Assembly: GCA_018002295.1 (NCBI GenBank)
Contig: JAGNGI010000014.1
Coordinates: 1 to 40,336, forward strand
Source: Fidelibacterota bacterium
Lineage (GTDB): Bacteria; Fidelibacterota; UBA2242
Length of the DNA stretch: 40,336 nt
Direction of reading: 5' to 3'
The notes under the pieces were generated by a model. That model was not told where the DNA came from and did no database searches. It was given only the letters and a program-made list of their open reading frames with translations. The translations under genes were made by a program, and so were the position numbers. Shown piece by piece: positions 6,046 through 14,419 of this stretch. Position 1 is the first letter of the stretch. Each line of letters opens with the position of its first letter.

Positions 6046-7677
6046 TTATTCTTCGATCATATACGGATAGTGAAAATCTTTTGGCGGAACGAAAAGTTCC
6101 TTCGTCGCGCGTGGTGAAACCCAACGCAAAAGGTTAATCATACTACCGGCTTTATCATTCGTACCGGAAGCACGTCCGCCACCGAATGGTTGTTGACCGA
6201 CGACTGCACCGGTTGGTTTATCATTGATATAAAAATTACCGGCGGCGTGGAGTAGAAATTTGTCCGCGAGCTGGATAGCCTGCCGATCACGAGCGAAAAT
6301 AGCGCCGGTCAGGGCGTACGGCGAAGTCATATTACAGAGATTGAGAGTTTCTTCGTATTTATTATCGTCATAGACAAAAACGGTCATAACCGGGCCGAAT
6401 ATTTCTTCTTCAAGAGTTTTGAAATGCGGATCGGTCGTTATTATAATAGTTGGCTCGACGAAATAGCCATTAGTAGCGTTGCCTTTTCCGCCAGCGATAA
6501 TTTCCGCATCGCGGGAATTTTTAGCGTAATTGATATACGATAAAATATTATCGAAAGCGGTTTTGTCAATTACAGCATTGATAAAATTGCGGAAATCGCG
6601 CACGTCGCCGATTTTAATCGTGCTAAGAGAAGCGAGTATTTTTTCTTTTAATGATGGCCAGAGTGATTGCGGGATGTAAGCGCGGGAAACCGCCGAACAT
6701 TTTTGACCTTGGTATTCGAAAGCGCCGCGAATAAGTGCAGTATTTAACTCATCCAGATCGGCACTGACGTGAGCAAAGATGAAATCCTTACCGCCGGTTT
6801 CCCCGACGATGCGTGGATAACCACGGTAATTGGCAATATTTTCACCAATAGTTTTCCACATACTTTGAAAAACGGCCGTCGAGCCGGTGAAATGCACACC
6901 TGCCAGTAGCGAATTGGAAAGAACATTCGGTCCTACATTGCGACCGGTTCCAGGGATAAAGTTAATTACACCGTCCGGCAGTCCGGCTTCTTGTAATAAT
7001 TTCATAAAATAATAAGCGGAGAGCACTGCGGTGCTGGCTGGTTTCCAGAGAACGGTATTGCCCATTATAGCTGGAGCAGTCGGCAAATTACCGGCGATGG
7101 AAGTAAAATTGAACGGCGTTACGGCAAAAACAAAACCTTCCAGGGGACGCTGTTCCAATCGGTTCCATTGACCAGGTGATGATAACGGCTGTTGCTCATA
7201 AATTTGTTCCATAAATTTGACATTAAAATTGAGGAAATCGATTAACTCGCATGCCGAATCAATTTCAGCCTGGTAAACATTTTTACTTTGATTGAGCATT
7301 GTCGCCGCATTGAGCGTTATTCGCCAAGGACCGGATAGCAATGCCGCGGCTTTTTTGAAAATTGCGGCGCGTTCGTGCCAGGGCATAACTGACCAAAATT
7401 CCCAGGCTTTTTGAGAAGCCTCGACTGCCAGGCTAACTTCTTTGGCAGTTGCCTGATGATAGACAGCCAGAATATGTTGATGATTGTGAGGCATAATGCA
7501 TTTCGCGGTTTGTCCGGTGCGGATTTCCTTGCCGCCGATAATTAACGGGATTTCAATCTGTTCGCCGGCTATTTTATTTAAAGCAATTTTTAAAGCCTGG
7601 CGCTCCGAACTGCCGTGCAAATAGGAAAATTGCAGTTCATTAACGGGTTGGGGTAAAGTAAACTTGGCGTTACTCAT
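6046..7677 (-). CDS. pruA: L-glutamate gamma-semialdehyde (1-pyrroline-5-carboxylate) dehydrogenase
   Basis: Oxidises glutamate semialdehyde to glutamate with NAD+, the second step of proline breakdown. The 543-residue protein matches stand-alone PruA/Put2-type enzymes. It has the P5C-dehydrogenase hallmark GFVFAVTPFNFTSIAGNL (181-198), the NAD-binding FTGST (263-267), catalytic Glu293 in VGETGGKDF and the nucleophile Cys327 in YQGQKCSAVSRAY. The C-terminal QQPFGGGRASGTNDKAG is also typical. GAGAGGAGAG precedes the ATG. No proline dehydrogenase (putA) gene is adjacent, so the proline-oxidising partner must be elsewhere or the substrate may come from ornithine. Confidence 0.95.
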   Translation of the reverse strand: MSNAKFTLPQPVNELQFSYLHGSSERQALKIALNKIAGEQIEIPLIIGGKEIRTGQTAKCIMPHNHQHILAVYHQATAKEVSLAVEASQKAWEFWSVMPWHERAAIFKKAAALLSGPWRITLNAATMLNQSKNVYQAEIDSACELIDFLNFNVKFMEQIYEQQPLSSPGQWNRLEQRPLEGFVFAVTPFNFTSIAGNLPTAPAIMGNTVLWKPASTAVLSAYYFMKLLQEAGLPDGVINFIPGTGRNVGPNVLSNSLLAGVHFTGSTAVFQSMWKTIGENIANYRGYPRIVGETGGKDFIFAHVSADLDELNTALIRGAFEYQGQKCSAVSRAYIPQSLWPSLKEKILASLSTIKIGDVRDFRNFINAVIDKTAFDNILSYINYAKNSRDAEIIAGGKGNATNGYFVEPTIIITTDPHFKTLEEEIFGPVMTVFVYDDNKYEETLNLCNMTSPYALTGAIFARDRQAIQLADKFLLHAAGNFYINDKPTGAVVGQQPFGGGRASGTNDKAGSMINLLRWVSPRATKELFVPPKDFHYPYMIEE

Positions 7678-7715
7678 TGATAGCTCTCCTCTCTGGCGTT
7701 GAACTTGGGATACAA

Positions 7716-7732
7716 TGTTAAAATGCTTAACA
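7716..7732. promoter_or_regulatory. inverted repeat upstream of pruA
   Basis: TGTTAAAATGCTTAACA is a 6-5-6 inverted repeat 38 bases before the pruA start, where an operator would be expected. It is short and A/T-rich, so it may be chance. Confidence 0.25.
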
Positions 7733-8089
7733 CTGACTTAAATTAATAAACTATTTTCTGAATTGGTAGGATTAAACGTTGTTAAGTAGTAAAAATTTAT
7801 ATTTTAGTGGAATTTTGGAAATATGAAGTTGTTTATGACGACGAATACAGTATTAATCGCCATTGTTTGGCTTTATAATACATATTTTTCATAGTGATTT
7901 TTGCGAAAATTATGAGGTTGAATATTTAAAGTTGAATTAAGATTTAAGCTGTACCGATTGATTTTCGAAAGTGGAAATTGTCAGCAATTTAAATATTATG
8001 AAAAATGTTCTAAATAGTCCATAAACTGCCGATATTTTTTAATTTTGGCATACTCACACGGATGTTTGATTTTATGGACGGAGTTTTCA
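7733..8089. other. intergenic stretch without recognisable gene
   Basis: About 360 A/T-rich bases between pruA and the alcohol dehydrogenase, both on the minus strand. I find no open frame with a convincing ribosome site, no RNA gene and no repeat here. It probably holds the pruA promoter and the dehydrogenase 3' end signal, but no good match can be singled out. Confidence 0.4.
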
Positions 8090-9118
8090 TTAGCTAATTT
8101 GGAGAACTTTGGCGCCGCGAACATGACGCTGTTTTAAATCCAGCAGGGCTTGATTGGCCTTTTCAAACGGATAAATTTCGACTTCCGGTTTGATCGGAAT
8201 TTCCGCGGCTAATTCTAAAAATTCGGCTACATCCCGCCGAGTGACATTGGCAACGGATTTAATTTCCTTCTCCAGCCAGAGATGTTCGGGATAATCAATC
8301 GTTGTCAGAATGGATTTATCGCTATTTTCTTTACGGATAGCGTTGATAACCAGACGACCGCCCGGTATGAGATTTTTCAAGGCGGCGACGATGGGCGTCC
8401 AGACCGGCGTCGTATCGATAATCGCATCCAGCAATTCTGGTGCAGGTTCATTCGTGTCGCCTGCCCAGACGGCGCCGAGTTCACGCGCGAATGCCTGTTC
8501 ATTCTCACTGCGGGCGAAGACATATACCGACGTTTGCGGAAAACGATGACGCACCATTTTCAGGACTAAGTGGGCCGAGGCGCCGAATCCGGTTAAGCCT
8601 AATTTCTGTCCATTGTATAAATTAGTCAGACGCAAAGAACGATAGCCAATCGCGCCGGCACAGAGAAGTGGGGCGGCTTCGGCGTCGGTGAAAATTTCAG
8701 GAATTGGATAAGCGAAATTTTCGTCAACCGTCATATATTCCGCGTAACCGCCGTTGGCGTCCCGTCCGGTAGCGCGAAACTGCGGGCAGAGGTTTTCCTG
8801 ATCTGAGAGGCAGTAAGAGCATTTTCCGCAGGCGGAAAAAATCCAGGCGATGCCGACGCGAGTTCCGATAGCAAAGCGGCGGGCGTCGGGACCATTTTCT
8901 ATTATTTGACCGATTACCTGATGTCCCGGTATCATCGGAAATGACGATGGCGGTGTGCGTCCTTCGATCTCATCCAGTTCAGTATGACAAACGCCGCAGA
9001 CAATGACTTTAATCAGGATTTCATTGGAAGTCGGACGCGGTTGTTCAACATCAGCGATAGTAAGAGGCGTCTCAGTCTTTTTTAAATCTTTAATTTCCGA
9101 GATAAAATAAGCTTTCAA
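8090..9118 (-). CDS. zinc-dependent alcohol dehydrogenase family protein
   Basis: Medium-chain dehydrogenase/reductase of 342 residues. The catalytic zinc ligands are visible as Cys44 (CGVCHTEL) and His66 (PGHQVIG, where most relatives have GHE). The four structural zinc cysteines are 97, 100, 103 and 111 (ACGKCSYCLSDQENLC). The cofactor-binding turn is GLTGFGASAH. It belongs to the AdhA-like group annotated as zinc-type alcohol dehydrogenase; the substrate cannot be read from sequence. The start codon is TTG at 9118, supported by AGAAGG a few bases upstream. The upstream frame that runs into it (stop TGA overlapping this TTG) is only the tail of a decayed transposase. Confidence 0.87.
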   Translation of the reverse strand: MKAYFISEIKDLKKTETPLTIADVEQPRPTSNEILIKVIVCGVCHTELDEIEGRTPPSSFPMIPGHQVIGQIIENGPDARRFAIGTRVGIAWIFSACGKCSYCLSDQENLCPQFRATGRDANGGYAEYMTVDENFAYPIPEIFTDAEAAPLLCAGAIGYRSLRLTNLYNGQKLGLTGFGASAHLVLKMVRHRFPQTSVYVFARSENEQAFARELGAVWAGDTNEPAPELLDAIIDTTPVWTPIVAALKNLIPGGRLVINAIRKENSDKSILTTIDYPEHLWLEKEIKSVANVTRRDVAEFLELAAEIPIKPEVEIYPFEKANQALLDLKQRHVRGAKVLQIS

Positions 9119-9718
9119 TTGACACCTTCTATTTCAATACGAATTTTGTCGGATCTAGGGACATGGTATCCACTTTTGGTGATAATGTTCAGATAATGAT
9201 CAGTGATGATAGGTGAGAAGATGCCGATGGTTTCAGGATTAATATTTGGCGGATTATATTCATTTAGTATTCCGATTGGTGTTTTCATATACTTATAGCG
9301 AAACTTACGCTGGTAGTTGAAATAAATGCAATATTTAAATGCTTTATTAAGCATTTCGCGTAGGTTGCGATAATCCTCTATAGTTCGAAGGACTCACTAT
9401 ACCATATCATAGGATTCATCCTCTATCAAGCGATGGGCGGCTTCGACATCACTGTTGGTCACAGGTAAGGTTGCCGACAACGGGTTGCCAGAATACGTTG
9501 TTCCTCCTGAACATTGATCTTAAAGGAGCTCCGATGTGGACGCCGACTGTGATCTACCAGACCCGATGTCCCATCGCTTTGATAACGCTTTAGCCATTTG
9601 CGAACTGTTTTTCTGGTGATACCAAATTATTATCCAGCGCGTAATGAACTAACTTAAAGCGAATATCATAGCAATTTTTCATTTCCTTGTAGGCTTCATA
9701 ATAGTTAATTTCAATCAT
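9115..9718 (-). pseudogene. decayed IS481-like transposase (integrase-type), core deleted
   Basis: Read on the minus strand, ATG 9718 has AAGGAG upstream and opens MIEINYYEAYKEMKNCYDIR. A frameshift near 9620 leads to FGITRKTVRKWLKRYQSDG and SGLVDHSRRPHRS, the helix-turn-helix and linker typical of IS481-type transposases. After about 9455 another frame reads PVTNSDVEAAHRLIEDESYD, which carries the DVE that should hold the last catalytic Glu. It is interrupted by two stops, then resumes as YRNLREMLNKAFKYCIYFNY and ends with ITKSGYHVP. About 200 codons remain of an expected 300 or more, and the central catalytic region is missing. The 79-codon frame at 9115-9354 is just its last piece. Confidence 0.8.
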
Positions 9719-9842
9719 CAGGGCTTTCTCCTTGTTTTAACCAGGTATTTTACAACTGCTAAAATACCAGATATTATTATAAGTCCTTCAAAAAACTGTT
9801 CTGCGTTAATCCTATTTATTTCTAAAAGGTGGATACCATGTC
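9160..9842 (-). mobile_element. IS481-like insertion sequence remnant with both terminal inverted repeats
   Basis: The decayed transposase is bracketed by terminal repeats. GACATGGTATCCACTTTT lies at 9160-9177 and its complement, GACATGGTATCCACCTTTT on the minus strand, at 9842-9824. They differ by one inserted base. The element is about 683 bp, shorter than an intact member because of the internal deletion, and is oriented right to left. The right terminal repeat falls inside the last codons of the transposase frame. A second copy of the 5' end of the same element is found at 14076-14138. Confidence 0.75.
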
Positions 9843-9849
9843 TTGATAC
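9787..9849 (-). repeat. 63-bp inverted repeat, copy A (5' end of the IS481-like element)
   Basis: This segment, read on the minus strand, matches 14076-14138 on the plus strand with only two substitutions in 63 bases. It contains the terminal repeat GACATGGTATCCACCTTTT and the untranslated leader of the transposase. The two copies face away from each other and bracket the SBBP gene and the IS982 element. Confidence 0.9.
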
Positions 9850-9974
9850 TTTACATAACAATTTTTCCAAAAAGTTCTTGATTTTTGCTATAATTTCATT
9901 TACAATTTAATATAGTTGGTTTTTGGAAACTTATAGTGAAGTGTTTGTTCTCAAATCTGAAAGGAGTTAAGGAA

Positions 9975-10019
9975 ATGTCATCCCTGAATTTATTTCGAGA
10001 TTGTTTTGAGAAACTGTGA
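9975..10019 (+). CDS. possible 14-codon leader peptide
   Basis: AAGGAG at 9961-9966 is followed 8 bases later by ATG and a 14-codon frame (MSSLNLFRDCFEKL) ending in TGA at 10017. It sits between the IS remnant and the SBBP gene. It may be a leader peptide or a chance or decayed start; nothing else supports it. The remaining sequence from 9843 to 10138 shows a TATAAT at 9889-9894 and no other recognisable feature. Confidence 0.2.
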   Translation: MSSLNLFRDCFEKL

Positions 10020-10085
10020 AGCAAAAGAATCGAGATTAACTGTCAGAGGACGCCATTGAATAAACAAAATGTGGAAGCTTAGATC

Positions 10086-10114
10086 TATGACTCTGTCTTT
10101 TTTCCACATATAAT
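10086..10114 (+). promoter_or_regulatory. candidate promoter for the SBBP-repeat gene
   Basis: A perfect TATAAT at 10109-10114 lies 24 bases before the ATG, with a weak -35-like ATGACT 16 bases upstream. The resulting leader would be short and begin just before AAAGGAGG. The -35 match is poor. Confidence 0.35.
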
Positions 10115-10138
10115 AGTTAAGAGCCAAAGGAGGTTATC

Positions 10139-12667
10139 ATGCGTAAAAAAATTATTGCACTGGTAGTCGGGCTTTGTGGTCTGGGATTTGCTGAAGAAAT
10201 ACCCGATGAGGTGGTGAGAGCCTGGATGGATGAAAATCGTGGTTTTGAGCAAAACCTCGGTCAGGTTGGTGATTTTGAAGGGAGTCCGGTAAACAATATC
10301 CTGTTTACGGCAAGAGATAATGGACTGGGCATCTTCATTACGGATCAGGGCGTAGGTTATGTTATTTACAAATCCGAAAAAATCCCTGAAGATGAAATCT
10401 CAGAATTGCCCCATTCCAAATCCCAAAGCGCCCGGCTTCACTCTGCCCGGATTGACCTTGAACTGGTAAATTCAAGGATTGAGACCGCAAATGTCGTGTA
10501 CGAGGATGAGCTGCCAGGATACACGAATTATTATCTTCCCCAATGTCCTCAGGGTGCTTTGTTTGTTAAGACCTACCAAAAGGTAAGAATAAAAGAGGTT
10601 TATCCTGGGATTGACTGGGTCTGGAGATATGAAGAAGGGAGACTTCATCATGAGTTTGAGGCTTCCGAGGATGCGGATATAAGCAAAATAAAATTCCGGG
10701 TGAAGTACGCGGATTTGGAGGTAAAAGATAATAAAAAGCTTATCCTTTCAACACCCATTGGAAAGATCGAGGATGGAAATGTAATTGGTTATGAAGGGAA
10801 GAATACGGTTGAAGTTCTCTACGAAATAGCAGCAGATGGACTAATTGGTTTTGATGTAAAGTCTTGGTCAAGGAAAGAGCGACTTATAATAGACCCACCC
10901 TTATCCCTTTTATGGGGCACCTACTATGGTGGAAATTATGGTGACGTTAGCAATTCCATTACGACCGATGGTTCAGGGAATATCTTTGTAACCGGTAGGA
11001 CTGGTTCAACAGATTTCCCGACCCAGAATCCTGGTGGTAGTACCTACTATCAGGGGACATATGCAGGAGGAAGTTGTGATGCCTTTATCTTGAAGTTTAC
11101 CAATACCGGGGTTAGAGAATGGGCGACCTATTACGGCGGAAATGATTGGGACGAAGGCTTTTCCATTACGACCGATGGTTCAGCGAATATCTTGGTAACC
11201 GGTGTGACTTGGTCAACCGATTTCCCTACCCAGAATCCTGGTGGTAATGCCTATTATCAGGGGTCAAATGCCGGACATTTGGAAGCCTTTATCTTGAAGT
11301 TTACCAATACTGGTGTCAGAACGTGGGCGACCTATTACGGCGGCAATAGTACGGACTATGGCTATTCCATTACGACCGATGGTTCAGCGAATATCTTGGT
11401 AACCGGTGTGACTTGGTCAACCGATTTCCCTACCCAGAATCCTGGTGGTGGTGCCTACTATCAAGAGACAAATGAAGGAGGATATGATGCCTTTATCTTG
11501 AAGTTTACCAATACTGGTATAAGAGAGTGGGCGACCTACTATGGCGGAAATGGTAGTGACTTTGGCTATTCCATTACGACCGATGGTTCAGGAAATACCT
11601 TTGTAACCGGTTATACTGAGTCAACCGATTTCCCGACTCAGGACCCTGGTGGTGGTGCCTATTATCAGGGGACACATGCCGGAAGTTATGATGCCTTTAT
11701 CTTGAAGTTTACCAATACCGGTGTTAGACAATGGGCAACCTATTATGGCGGAACTGGTTATGACTGGGGCAATTCCATTACGACCGATGGTTCCGGGAAT
11801 ATCTTGGTAACCGGTTATACTTATTCAACCGATTTTCCGACCCAGGACGCTGGTGGTGGTGCCTATTATCAGGGGACATTAGCAGGAGGTGGGGACGATG
11901 CCTTTATCTTGAAGTTTACCAATACCGGTGTTAGAGAATGGGCAACCTATTATGGCGGAAGTGAGGATGCTGACAATGGATATTCCATTACGACCGATGG
12001 TTCAGGGAATATCTTTGTAACTGGTGATACTTGGTCAAACGATTTCCCAACCCAGAATCCGGGTGGTGCTGCCTATTATCAGGGGACATTAGCAGGAGGT
12101 TTTGATGCTTTTATCTTGAAGTTTACCAATACCGGTGTTAGACAATGGGCAACCTATTATGGCGGAACTGATGCTGACTATGGATATTCCATTACGACCG
12201 ATGGTTCAGGTAATATCTTTGTAACCGGTTATACTGAGTCAACCAATTTCCCAACCCAAAATCCTGGTGGTGGTGCCTATTATCAGGGGACACATGCCGG
12301 AGGTAATAATGATGCCTTTATCCTGAAGTTTGAAGCATTTGGGGTGGGTATTGAAGAAGAAACTGAATTTCCAAAAGAATTTGCTCTTTATCAGAACTAT
12401 CCCAATCCATTTAATCCAGTAACGAATATTCATTATGGGATTCCAAATAAGAGCCATGTTAATATTAAGATATATGATCTACTTGGGAGGGAAGTCAGGA
12501 CGCTTGTTGATAAAGAACAAGAAGCCAGTTACTATAATATTATTTGGGATTCAAAAGACAATTTTGGCAATAATGTTTCAAGCGGGATGTATTTATATAA
12601 AATTGTTGCATATTCAGATGGTAGAGGAGTCTTCGTAAAAACGAGAAAATTGCTTCTTTTACGATGA
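10139..12667 (+). CDS. secreted SBBP-repeat beta-propeller protein with C-terminal sorting domain
   Basis: 842 residues in four parts. (1) An N-terminal signal peptide ([20 protein letters not shown]). (2) A domain of about 230 residues that begins with [10 protein letters not shown] and ends with [17 protein letters not shown], the module that commonly precedes SBBP repeats. (3) Seven tandem repeats of 68-69 residues (consensus ATYYGG...[14 protein letters not shown]...[11 protein letters not shown]...[13 protein letters not shown]), which should fold as a beta-propeller. (4) A C-terminal FlgD-like/Por-type domain ([38 protein letters not shown]) that directs export or surface attachment. 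AAAGGAGG precedes the ATG. The protein is most likely on the cell surface or released; no enzymatic function is apparent. The gene lies between IS elements, so it may be an acquired cargo gene. Confidence 0.93.
10913..12331 (+). repeat. seven tandem ~205-bp repeats inside the SBBP gene
   Basis: Repeat units begin near 10913, 11119, 11323, 11527, 11731, 11938 and 12145. They are strongly alike in DNA as well as protein: TCCATTACGACCGATGGTTC recurs in nearly every unit, and units 2 and 3 are identical over about 85 bases. Such nucleotide identity points to recent duplication or gene conversion between units. Confidence 0.9.
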
Positions 12668-12838
12668 GTATTGAATAAAAAATGCTAACTATAGTCTGGA
12701 AGTAACGAGGCGGACTGTTCGATGAACTTAGATATAACCCGTTGTGTGAAATAAAAACCTAAAAAATAAGATGTGCATTAGCTTAAAAATCCTTAAATTA
12801 TTGTATTGTATTTCAATAATAAACAAAGAGATAAACTA

Positions 12839-13761
12839 ATGCACAATCTTAAATTAACCTTCGATCGCATCAAACCAATTGTCAAGGAATCACTTGCTAA
12901 TTTCATCGATTCTAATGAAAATATCAATAAAATTGGTGCGAAACCTAAATTCAGTGATGTTGACCTTATCGCATTATCGCTGGTCGCGGAAAGCCTTTCC
13001 ATCAATAGTGAGAATCTCCTGTTTGCTAAACTGCGATCTGAATATCAAGAGGACTTTCCATTGCTGATCGACCGTTCCCAATTTAATCGGCGCCGGAAAC
13101 ATCTCGCTAAATTCATTAATATTGTTCGAGAAACCCTAGTTCAAAAACTATTACCGGCTGAAGACACCTTTATCCTCGATTCAATGCCAGTTGAAATCTG
13201 CAAATTCACTCGTGCAAAGCGGATTAAAATCTGCAAAGAATCTATTGAAACAGCACCAGAATACGGCTATTGCGCGGCTCAAAATACCCATTATTTCGGG
13301 TATAAATTCCATGGGGTTTGTAGTCTTAATGGGGTCATAACCAGTTTTGATCTCTCCAAAGCCAACCATGCCGATATTCAATATCTCAGAGATGTTGAAC
13401 CTTATTATGCTAATTGTCTGATGTTAGGGGATAAAGCCTATCTCGATTCTGAATATCAACTGGAATTATTCGAGACGACCTGCCTGCCATCAGGCGGGGA
13501 GGTATTCAATTAAATACGCCTATGCGCTCCAATCAGAAGAATTATCGAAGACAACCGGCATTGTTTCGAAAAGTTCGTAAACGGATTGAAACCTTGTTTT
13601 CTCAGTTGGTAGATCAATTCGTGATTCGTGTAAATTATGCCAAAACCTTTGTCGGCTTGGCTACCAGGATTTTGTCGAAAGTGACCGCCTTCACTTTGCT
13701 ACAGTTCCTGAATTCTATCAATAATAAACCCCTAAATCATATTAAATATGCCCTCGCTTAA
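12839..13761 (+). pseudogene. IS982-family transposase, interrupted by a frameshifting hairpin insertion
   Basis: The N-terminal part (to the stop at 13511-13513) includes the family segments ILDSMPVEICKFTRAKR, EYGYCAAQNTHYFGYKFHG and MLGDKAYLDSEYQLELFET, covering the first catalytic acidic residues. The rest continues in another frame as QLNTPMRSNQKNY, RKVRKRIETLFSQLVDQF and YAKTFVGLATRILSKV, with the last catalytic Glu in RIETLFSQ. The two frames are separated by a short GC-rich hairpin at 13478-13503 that looks inserted. ATG 12839 is taken as start because AAAGAG lies just before it; an in-frame TTG at 12806 is possible. Restored, the protein would be about 300 residues. Confidence 0.85.
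13478..13503. repeat. GC-rich imperfect palindrome inserted in the transposase
   Basis: This 26-base segment contains GCCTGCCATCAGGCGGGG and folds into a hairpin: four outer pairs, one mismatch, then six pairs (one G-T) around a loop of about four bases. It is far richer in G+C than its surroundings and sits exactly where the IS982 reading frame breaks. An insert of 20 or 23 bases fits the observed frame change. It resembles mini palindromic repeats seen dispersed in some bacterial genomes. Confidence 0.6.
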
Positions 13762-13902
13762 TTCCACACAACCGGTTATTTATACATTGTCAATATAGAG
13801 ACCCAAAAAATAAAGTTCATAGATGGAGAATCAGCTGTTAATCCCGTATGGAATCCTTTATTACCATACTAATTAACTCGCTAGAGAAAGGAGGTTAGTA
13901 AA

Positions 13903-13920
13903 ATGTTTGATACATCTTAA
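13903..13920 (+). other. strong ribosome site followed by a 5-codon frame
   Basis: AAAGGAGG at 13887-13894 is ideally spaced before ATG 13903, but the frame is only MFDTS and then TAA. It is most simply the remnant of a gene start whose body was lost in the surrounding rearrangements. A minimal leader peptide is less likely. Confidence 0.35.
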
Positions 13921-14039
13921 AATAAGAGAAAAATCATAAGGTGTTTTCATAACAAAACATAACAATTCTTTTATTTGAAAATACCTTAGAAAAAAAATGA
14001 AGAAAAGAGCTAATAGTTACATAGCATGACATCGTTTAC

Positions 14040-14068
14040 ATTCACCCCATGGGGTGAATCGGTTTTTT
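14040..14068 (+). terminator. rho-independent terminator-like palindrome
   Basis: ATTCACCCCATGGGGTGAAT is a perfect 20-base palindrome, followed by CGG and six T. The stem of 7-8 pairs plus T-run fits an intrinsic terminator reading rightward. No intact gene precedes it nearby, so it may have belonged to the gene lost around 13903. An operator is a second possibility. Confidence 0.55.
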
Positions 14069-14075
14069 ATGTAAA

Positions 14076-14138
14076 GTATTAAGACATGGTATCCACCTTT
14101 TAGAAATAAATAGGATTAACGCAGAGCAGTTTTTTGAA
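14076..14138 (+). repeat. 63-bp inverted repeat, copy B (solo 5' end of the IS481-like element)
   Basis: Matches 9787-9849 in inverted orientation with two differences. It begins just outside the terminal repeat GACATGGTATCCACCTTTT (14083-14101) and stops after TTTTTTGAA, where similarity ends abruptly. No transposase sequence follows. It is a truncated second copy of the element, pointing right. Confidence 0.9.
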
Positions 14139-14342: not shown

Positions 14343-14419
14343 GGGCGATTAGCTCAGGTGGCTAGAGTACCTGCTTGACATGCAGGGGGTCACTGGTTCA
14401 AGTCCAGTATCGCCCACCA
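14343..14419 (+). tRNA. tRNA-Val (anticodon GAC)
   Basis: A full cloverleaf of 77 bases. The acceptor stem is GGGCGAT/ATCGCCC, the D-arm contains AGCTCAGGTGGCTAGAGT, and the anticodon stem CCTGC/GCAGG encloses the loop TTGACAT with anticodon GAC, reading GUC/GUU valine codons. The T-arm is ACTGGTTCAAGTCCAGT. CCA is encoded at 14417-14419. It is followed by a damaged copy of its own 3' end. Confidence 0.95.

What the first reader, a model, noticed from the sequence alone, without database searches (positions are those of the whole stretch)
9787..14138. Inverted 63-bp IS ends bracket the SBBP gene and IS982 element
Copy A (9787-9849) and copy B (14076-14138) differ by two bases and point outward, enclosing about 4.2 kb. 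The arrangement is like a composite transposon carrying a surface protein gene as cargo, or a product of IS-mediated inversion or recombination.
Basis: partly seen in the sequence, partly recalled or inferred. Interest (0 to 1): 0.55.

Follow-up and report, generated by a model that had tools for sequence, protein, structure and literature searches.

The report
Jumping DNA that lands beside promoters
The two mirror-image repeats around a surface-protein gene are worn-out ends of a small jumping DNA element, not a two-ended vehicle carrying the gene, and copies of this element family sit again and again at a fixed short distance in front of gene start signals, which suggests that it aims for them.

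Summary
The inverted repeat is real: 9787-9849 and 14076-14138 differ at 2 of 63 bases. Both are the same end of an IS481-like insertion sequence. Copy A ends a two-tipped, internally deleted 709-bp element (9147-9855); copy B (14070-14138) is a lone right end. The tips face the cargo, so 9856-14069 is host DNA between two relics. A composite transposon is not supported: B has no outer end, A has no target duplication, and the 4.2 kb is a patchwork (SBBP gene, separate IS982, gene fragments). In relative G004 the neighbours (ADH, tRNA-Val) lie 1.07 kb apart without SBBP gene or IS.

A's tip lies 22 nt before the SBBP promoter (TTGATT-17-TACAAT). This recurs: in 14 of 26 elements one tip, never both, has a -35 box or promoter pointing away 16-22 nt outside, mostly at 19; shuffles give 0.6-1.8 of 34 ends. 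A hold-out gave 3 of 6 ends. Promoter-upstream insertion is published for TnGBS, ISLre2 and ISKra4 (PMC3942029); my searches found none for IS481-like elements. Targeting is inferred from position, not shown by experiment.

The parts
9147..9855 (-). Internally deleted, non-coding IS481-like element with both tips (copy A is its right, transposase-start end). Remnants of the HTH start (about 9593-9736) and of the transposase C-terminus (about 9118-9393) on the minus strand
   Evidence: ends compared with a 1285-bp full-length copy in G004:C9 (L153) and with the same deletion derivative in G031:C40 (81% identity over 529 bp)
9787..9849 (-).
9878..9906 (+). Predicted sigma70-type promoter TTGATT-17-TACAAT of the SBBP gene; its -35 begins 22 nt outside the A tip
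   Evidence: the surrounding leader 9860-9974 is 76% identical to IS-free DNA in G018:C20
10139..12667 (+). SBBP gene: 842-aa protein with DUF7948, SBBP beta-propeller repeats (7 stretches) and a type IX secretion sorting tail
12737..13778 (+). IS982-family element with its own ends (ACCCGTTGTGTG...CACACAACCGGT) and a transposase split into two reading frames (235 + 79 aa)
13779..14009 (+). Remnant of another locus: 3' end of one gene and the leader of the next, 72% identical to G012:C263
14016..14069 (+). 54-bp palindromic element (ATTCACCCCATGGGGTGAAT) abutting the B tip; 91% identical to G008:C164 and 93% over 40 nt to G011:C167
14070..14138 (+). Copy B: lone, truncated right end of the same IS481-like family; no left end and no promoter 16-22 nt outside its tip
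14343..14419 (+). tRNA-Val (gac), conserved next to ThrS; about 115 bp upstream are also conserved with G004 (71%)

Best explanation
A and B are relics of two insertions of one IS481-like family and do not form a transposon. A is an internally deleted, two-tipped copy that landed between the alcohol dehydrogenase gene and the SBBP gene, 22 nt upstream of the SBBP promoter's -35 box; B is the surviving right end of another copy. A lies there because this family prefers to insert about 19 nt (16-22) upstream of the -35 box of sigma70 promoters, with the IS on the upstream side, at about -55, where an UP element would lie. SHOWN: the identity of the ends, the missing outer end of B, the site without SBBP gene or IS in G004, and the positional peak of predicted promoters outside IS tips. 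INFERRED: that the peak reflects target choice during transposition (for example by the transposase recognising promoter-bound RNA polymerase or UP-element DNA) and that A inserted beside an already existing SBBP promoter.
For: IS identity: NCBIfam IS481 is the best match of both halves of the G004 transposase (E 1.8e-17 and 9.5e-13). Positional signal (34 ends of 26 elements in 6 genomes): promoters of at least 9 of 12 at 16-22 nt outside the tip in 9 of 34 ends and TTGA[CAT] in 13 of 34; dinucleotide shuffles gave means of 0.58 and 1.82 and maxima of 3 and 8 in 1000. Intergenic background in the window and G004 stretches: 1.45% and 3.9%, hardly changed when matched for AT content and A/T runs; binomial p 1.1e-9 and 1.9e-10. 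Per element: 14 of 26 have one positive end, 0 have both; 8 left and 6 right ends. Hold-out from 800 kb of G004 (fetched; scanned in 57, 59): 6 ends, 3 positive at 19, 19 and 18 nt, p 0.0011. Combined 40 ends: TTGA in the 16-22 window 16 times, 8 of them at exactly 19; the best separate 7-nt window has 7; TTGA pointing towards the IS at the same distances, 3. IS982 control: promoters 0 of 12, TTGA 2 of 12. Distant IS481-like relatives: G042 and G050 have a promoter at 18 and 19 nt. Site.
Against: 12 of 26 elements show no such promoter by these rules, B among them. The SBBP promoter is only 9 of 12 and its offset, 22 nt, is at the edge of the peak. The distance range and the motif were chosen after looking at 25 tips; only the 6 hold-out ends are free of that, and of the 3 positive ones only one also meets the full promoter rule. 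Two positive G004 flanks (C12:215k and C6) look alike and may not be independent. Two other IS481-like relatives (G012, G029) gave no promoter at 16-22 nt. Of 9 two-ended elements the target-duplication scan flagged only C9 (inside a T run) and C13 (7 nt with one mismatch); L313 is suggestive by eye. Promoters are sequence predictions; no transcription start is known.
Confidence: 0.74

Rival explanations
1. Composite transposon: two inverted copies of the IS moved the SBBP gene as cargo to this site, and the outer part of B was lost later.
For: Inverted near-identical ends flank the gene; the SBBP body is rare in the phylum (4 of 245 genomes at E<=1e-30, own genome included); G004 lacks the block at this site.
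Against: B has no outer end; A shows no target duplication at its own borders; the enclosed DNA includes a separately inserted IS982 and a gene fragment related to another locus; the whole unit was not found in 22 relatives; G004's gap holds two other small ORFs, so it is not a clean empty site.
Confidence: 0.07
2. IS-mediated local rearrangement: B is a copy of A's end made by an aborted or one-ended event, inversion or recombination rather than an independent insertion.
For: A and B are each other's closest relatives: 96% over 75 bp against 78-86% for other right ends of the genome, sharing TGTAAAGTAT where other right ends of this genome mostly read (T/G)GTATAGTAT or similar.
Against: Both are right ends, so they cannot be two halves of one element; lone end fragments are common in this genome (C7, C9, C110, C119, C114), so a lone end needs no special event; the match stops 3 nt past the tip.
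Confidence: 0.2
3. The promoter peak reflects survival, not targeting: insertions land anywhere and those that spare the promoter are kept.
For: Insertions inside genes or core promoters would be harmful, and the IS are relics.
Against: Survival would tolerate any distance upstream, but the offsets peak at 18-21 nt and few promoters lie at 23-86 nt. IS982 ends, 8 of 12 of them from the same genome, show no promoter at this distance.
Confidence: 0.15
4. The family simply prefers A/T tracts, which happen to be common upstream of -35 boxes.
For: The 16 nt outside positive tips are A/T-rich.
Against: Background positions matched for AT content and A/T runs have the promoter in only 1.45% and TTGA in 4.0%, against 6 and 9 of 16 matched ends.
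Confidence: 0.1

Closest known systems
TnGBS and ISLre2 (p-MULT 3) and ISKra4 group (p-MULT 4) elements (Guerillot et al. 2014, PMC3942029: abstract, section 12 and passages read)
   Same: Insertion a short fixed distance upstream of the -35 of sigmaA promoters (15-17 bp for TnGBS); promoters on either side for ISKra4-group members whose two IRs are nearly alike, and here both IS ends are used too
   Different: Those transposases belong to the Mutator superfamily. Here the transposase is IS481-like and the commonest distance is 19 nt (16-22)
IS481 family (NCBIfam NF033577)
   Same: HTH start and IS481-like catalytic half; best match of both parts and of the intact relatives; about 1.3 kb
   Different: Scores are below the curated cut-off (63.8 and 48.3; relatives 149 and 146; cut-off 224). 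No promoter-upstream preference for IS481 turned up in my searches
IS982 family (PMC7335449, passages read)
   Same: 12737-13778: transposase above the NCBIfam cut-off (144.8 against 130), AC ends, about 1 kb
   Different: Transposase broken by a frame change; ordinary, unrelated to the 63-bp repeat
Composite transposons
   Same: Inverted IS-derived ends around a gene
   Different: One outer end missing, no target duplication, cargo is a patchwork

Membership tests
Composite transposon | Two IS copies, each with its outer end, flanking the cargo | tested here: not met
   A has both tips (9147, 9855); B has only its inner tip (14070) and stops at 14138
Composite transposon | Target duplication at the outer borders | tested here: inconclusive
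   B's outer border is lost; A's own borders show none
Composite transposon | The same unit found at another site | tested here: not met
   The 9858-14075 segment was not found whole in 22 relatives or elsewhere in the own genome
IS481 family | Transposase matches the family model | tested here: inconclusive
   Best model for both halves and for the intact relatives, but below the curated cut-off; LZ_Tnp_IS481 above its cut-off in both relatives scanned
IS481 family | Terminal inverted repeats beginning TGT (recalled) | tested here: met
   Left TGTCTGATYT..GACATGGTATCCAC; right TGTAWAGTATCAAGACATGG in the window genome, but TGGAAAG in G004
IS481 family | Target duplication (4-15 bp, recalled) | tested here: inconclusive
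   No clear one in 9 two-ended elements; C9 (T run) and C13 (7 nt, one mismatch) flagged; L313 flanks alike at 12 of 15 positions by eye
Promoter-targeting p-MULT elements (TnGBS, ISLre2, ISKra4) | Promoter at a fixed short distance outside the IS end | tested here: met
   distance 16-22 nt, commonest 19, against 15-17 published for TnGBS
Promoter-targeting p-MULT elements (TnGBS, ISLre2, ISKra4) | Mutator-type transposase | tested here: not met
   No ISLre2, ISKra4 or IS256 model among NCBIfam hits at E<=0.1 for the transposase or its relatives
IS982 family (12737-13778) | Transposase model, AC ends, about 1 kb | tested here: met
   family features from PMC7335449

The most novel reading that the evidence does not exclude
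An IS481-like transposase family of Neomarinimicrobiota has, independently of the Mutator-type TnGBS/ISLre2/ISKra4 elements, evolved a mechanism that directs insertion to about -55 of sigma70 promoters, probably by reading promoter-bound RNA polymerase (alpha C-terminal domain) or UP-element DNA, and places the IS where it spares the gene, as Ty3 does upstream of Pol III genes.
Probability: 0.6. Interest if true: 0.72.

Novelty: new variant of a known kind. Interest (0 to 1): 0.58.

Why it matters
Promoter-directed insertion in bacteria is known to me only from Mutator-type transposases. If an unrelated, retroviral-integrase-like family does the same, two lineages have converged on one safe site, the likely common partner (RNA polymerase or UP element) can be tested directly, and relics of such elements become markers of real promoters in uncultured bacteria.

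Tried and rejected
Composite transposon, and an IS that mobilised the SBBP gene: rejected as above. SBBP gene context in relatives: searching the full protein mostly returned sorting-tail matches, so the body alone was searched. Nine ADH orthologues in other relatives were read for shared neighbours; none had ThrS or the SBBP gene nearby in the stretch read. IS relatives on plasmids: none at E<=1e-15. Solved structures: no relative. Rfam: only the two tRNAs. The idea that the 12-of-12 leftward promoter at 14227-14199 once drove the ADH gene was left untested. Rows dropped before the counts (4 of 38): two ends with flanks homologous to another end, one end with a masked flank, and one doubtful end (8 mismatches). 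One hold-out match at 10 mismatches was dropped as chance-level (the reversed control gave 2 such matches in 800 kb).

Papers: PMC3942029 abstract, section 12 and passages; PMC9208149, PMC7335449 and PMC10433421 passages only; all others seen only as search listings. UP-element and IS481 textbook features are recalled; the Ty3 comparison is PMC3942029's own remark.

Full report
WHAT IS THERE. The inverted pair is confirmed: 2 differences in 63 bases, extending to 72 nt. The window is contig C48 of a 2.2-Mb, 120-contig genome; ThrS matches of 76% and 75% name the group Candidatus Neomarinimicrobiota. Searching the own genome with 9150-9861 gave a second partial copy at 86% and further partial ends in C7, C9, C59, C95, C110, C114 and C119. 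The same DNA search hit 6 of 61 genomes, and 5 of 245 in the phylum at E<=1e-9, the own genome included in both.

THE ELEMENT. A full-length copy in G004:C9 (263881-265165, 1285 bp, tips set) has a helix-turn-helix ORF of 99 aa and a 233-aa catalytic ORF separated by a stop. The best NCBIfam match of both is IS481, below the curated cut-off; intact relatives in G029 and G042 (45% identity over 228 aa for G029) score 149 and 146 against a cut-off of 224. I therefore say IS481-like. In the window, 9147-9855 keeps both tips but has lost the middle of the gene, and G031:C40 holds the same shortened form at 81% over 529 bp, so this derivative was itself mobile or was transferred. Copy A is its right end, the start side of the transposase. 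Copy B is a lone right end of 69 bp, truncated at 14138.

THE CARGO. 10139-12667 encodes an 842-aa protein with DUF7948, SBBP repeats and a type IX sorting tail. Its body is found in 4 of 245 phylum genomes at E<=1e-30, the own genome included. 12737-13778 is an IS982 with its own ends and further, mostly shortened, copies in the own genome. 13779-14009 is 72% identical to the end of one gene and the leader of the next in G012:C263, and 14016-14069 is a palindromic element also found in G008 and G011. So the 4.2 kb is a patchwork.

THE SITE IN A RELATIVE. In G004:C17 the order aldehyde dehydrogenase, ADH, tRNA-Val, ThrS is kept, with 1066 bp between ADH and tRNA-Val that hold two small Cys/His-containing ORFs and neither SBBP gene nor IS. 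DNA identity with the window resumes at about 14226, just upstream of tRNA-Val. This is a site without the block, but not a clean empty site. The other nine ADH orthologues read lie elsewhere.

AN UNEXPECTED REGULARITY. Reading outward from IS tips, a TTGACA-like hexamer followed by a TATAAT-like one recurs at one distance. I fixed the rule (at least 9 of 12, spacer 16-18, -35 starting 16-22 nt outside the tip) and counted 34 ends of 26 elements after dropping 4 of 38 rows: 9 ends have such a promoter, 13 have TTGA[CAT], 14 have either. Shuffles: means 0.58 and 1.82, maxima 3 and 8 of 1000. Real intergenic positions: 1.45% and 3.9%, nearly the same after matching for AT content and A/T runs. 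Per element 14 of 26 have one positive end and none has two; left and right ends are used alike, 8 and 6. The window's A belongs to these: tip at 9855, -35 at 9878. Window B does not.

HOLD-OUT AND CONTROLS. In 800 kb of G004 not used before I found 6 further ends with at most 9 mismatches; 3 have TTGA at 19, 19 and 18 nt, p 0.0011; one of the three also meets the full promoter rule. Over all 40 ends the 16-22 window holds 16 TTGA, 8 of them at 19; the best separate window of equal width holds 7; TTGA pointing towards the IS at these distances, 3. IS982 ends as control: 0 of 12 promoters, 2 of 12 TTGA. Four more distant IS481-like elements, with the tip set 13 nt before the ACAT core (a rule set after looking): G050 at 19 nt and G042 at 18 nt are positive, G029 and G012 (one end seen) are not.

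HOW IT PROBABLY WORKS. With -35 at about -36, 19 nt puts the IS junction near -55, the upstream edge of the region where the alpha C-terminal domain of RNA polymerase touches UP elements (recalled). Survival alone would allow any distance upstream. The simplest reading is that target choice involves the promoter, through bound polymerase or UP-element DNA. This is inference from relics; no transposition was observed.

WHAT IS KNOWN. Guerillot et al. 2014 (PMC3942029) report that TnGBS and ISLre2 (p-MULT 3) and part of the ISKra4 group insert upstream of sigmaA promoters, TnGBS at 15-17 bp, and propose contact with the polymerase initiation complex. Those are Mutator-type transposases; no such model hit ours at E<=0.1. 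Searches for the same behaviour in IS481-type elements found nothing; the library lacks most subscription papers. Hence: new variant of a known kind.

VERDICT. Observation confirmed; composite transposon not supported; ordinary IS relics at the locus, with a notable insertion preference behind the position of A.

Noticed in passing
window 14227-14199 (minus strand): A 12-of-12 sigma70 promoter (TTGACA-17-TATAAT) points left into B, with no obvious gene directly downstream; it may once have served the ADH gene.
   Followed up: no
window 12737-13778; G000:C74 and C23 (L256, L257): IS982 copies elsewhere in the genome share an internal deletion of about 150 bp that the window copy lacks, and two C23 copies share a larger one: non-autonomous derivatives seem to have spread.
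   Followed up: partly
window 13903-13920; L307 about 1400-1370 (minus): A tiny ORF (MFDTS / MLDTS) with a strong ribosome site is conserved between two gene remnants and in G012; it may be a leader peptide.
   Followed up: no
window 14016-14069; L309 1136-1187; L310 2709-2748: A 54-bp palindromic element is 91-93% conserved between genera in unrelated surroundings; function unknown.
   Followed up: partly
window 9860-9974; L308 1156-1267 (minus): The leader of the SBBP gene is 76% identical to the leader of an unrelated gene in G018, as if promoter-leaders themselves were exchanged.
   Followed up: partly
G031:C40:1-741 (L149): The same shortened IS form occurs in another family of the phylum at 81% identity, which suggests transfer of the non-autonomous element.
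   Followed up: partly
L158 about 7300-8000: G004 has two small Cys/His-containing ORFs between ADH and tRNA-Val, so the spot next to tRNA-Val varies between relatives.
   Followed up: no
L313 13806-14042: A 237-bp derivative in G004 has flanks alike at 12 of 15 positions by eye, a possible 15-bp target duplication.
   Followed up: partly
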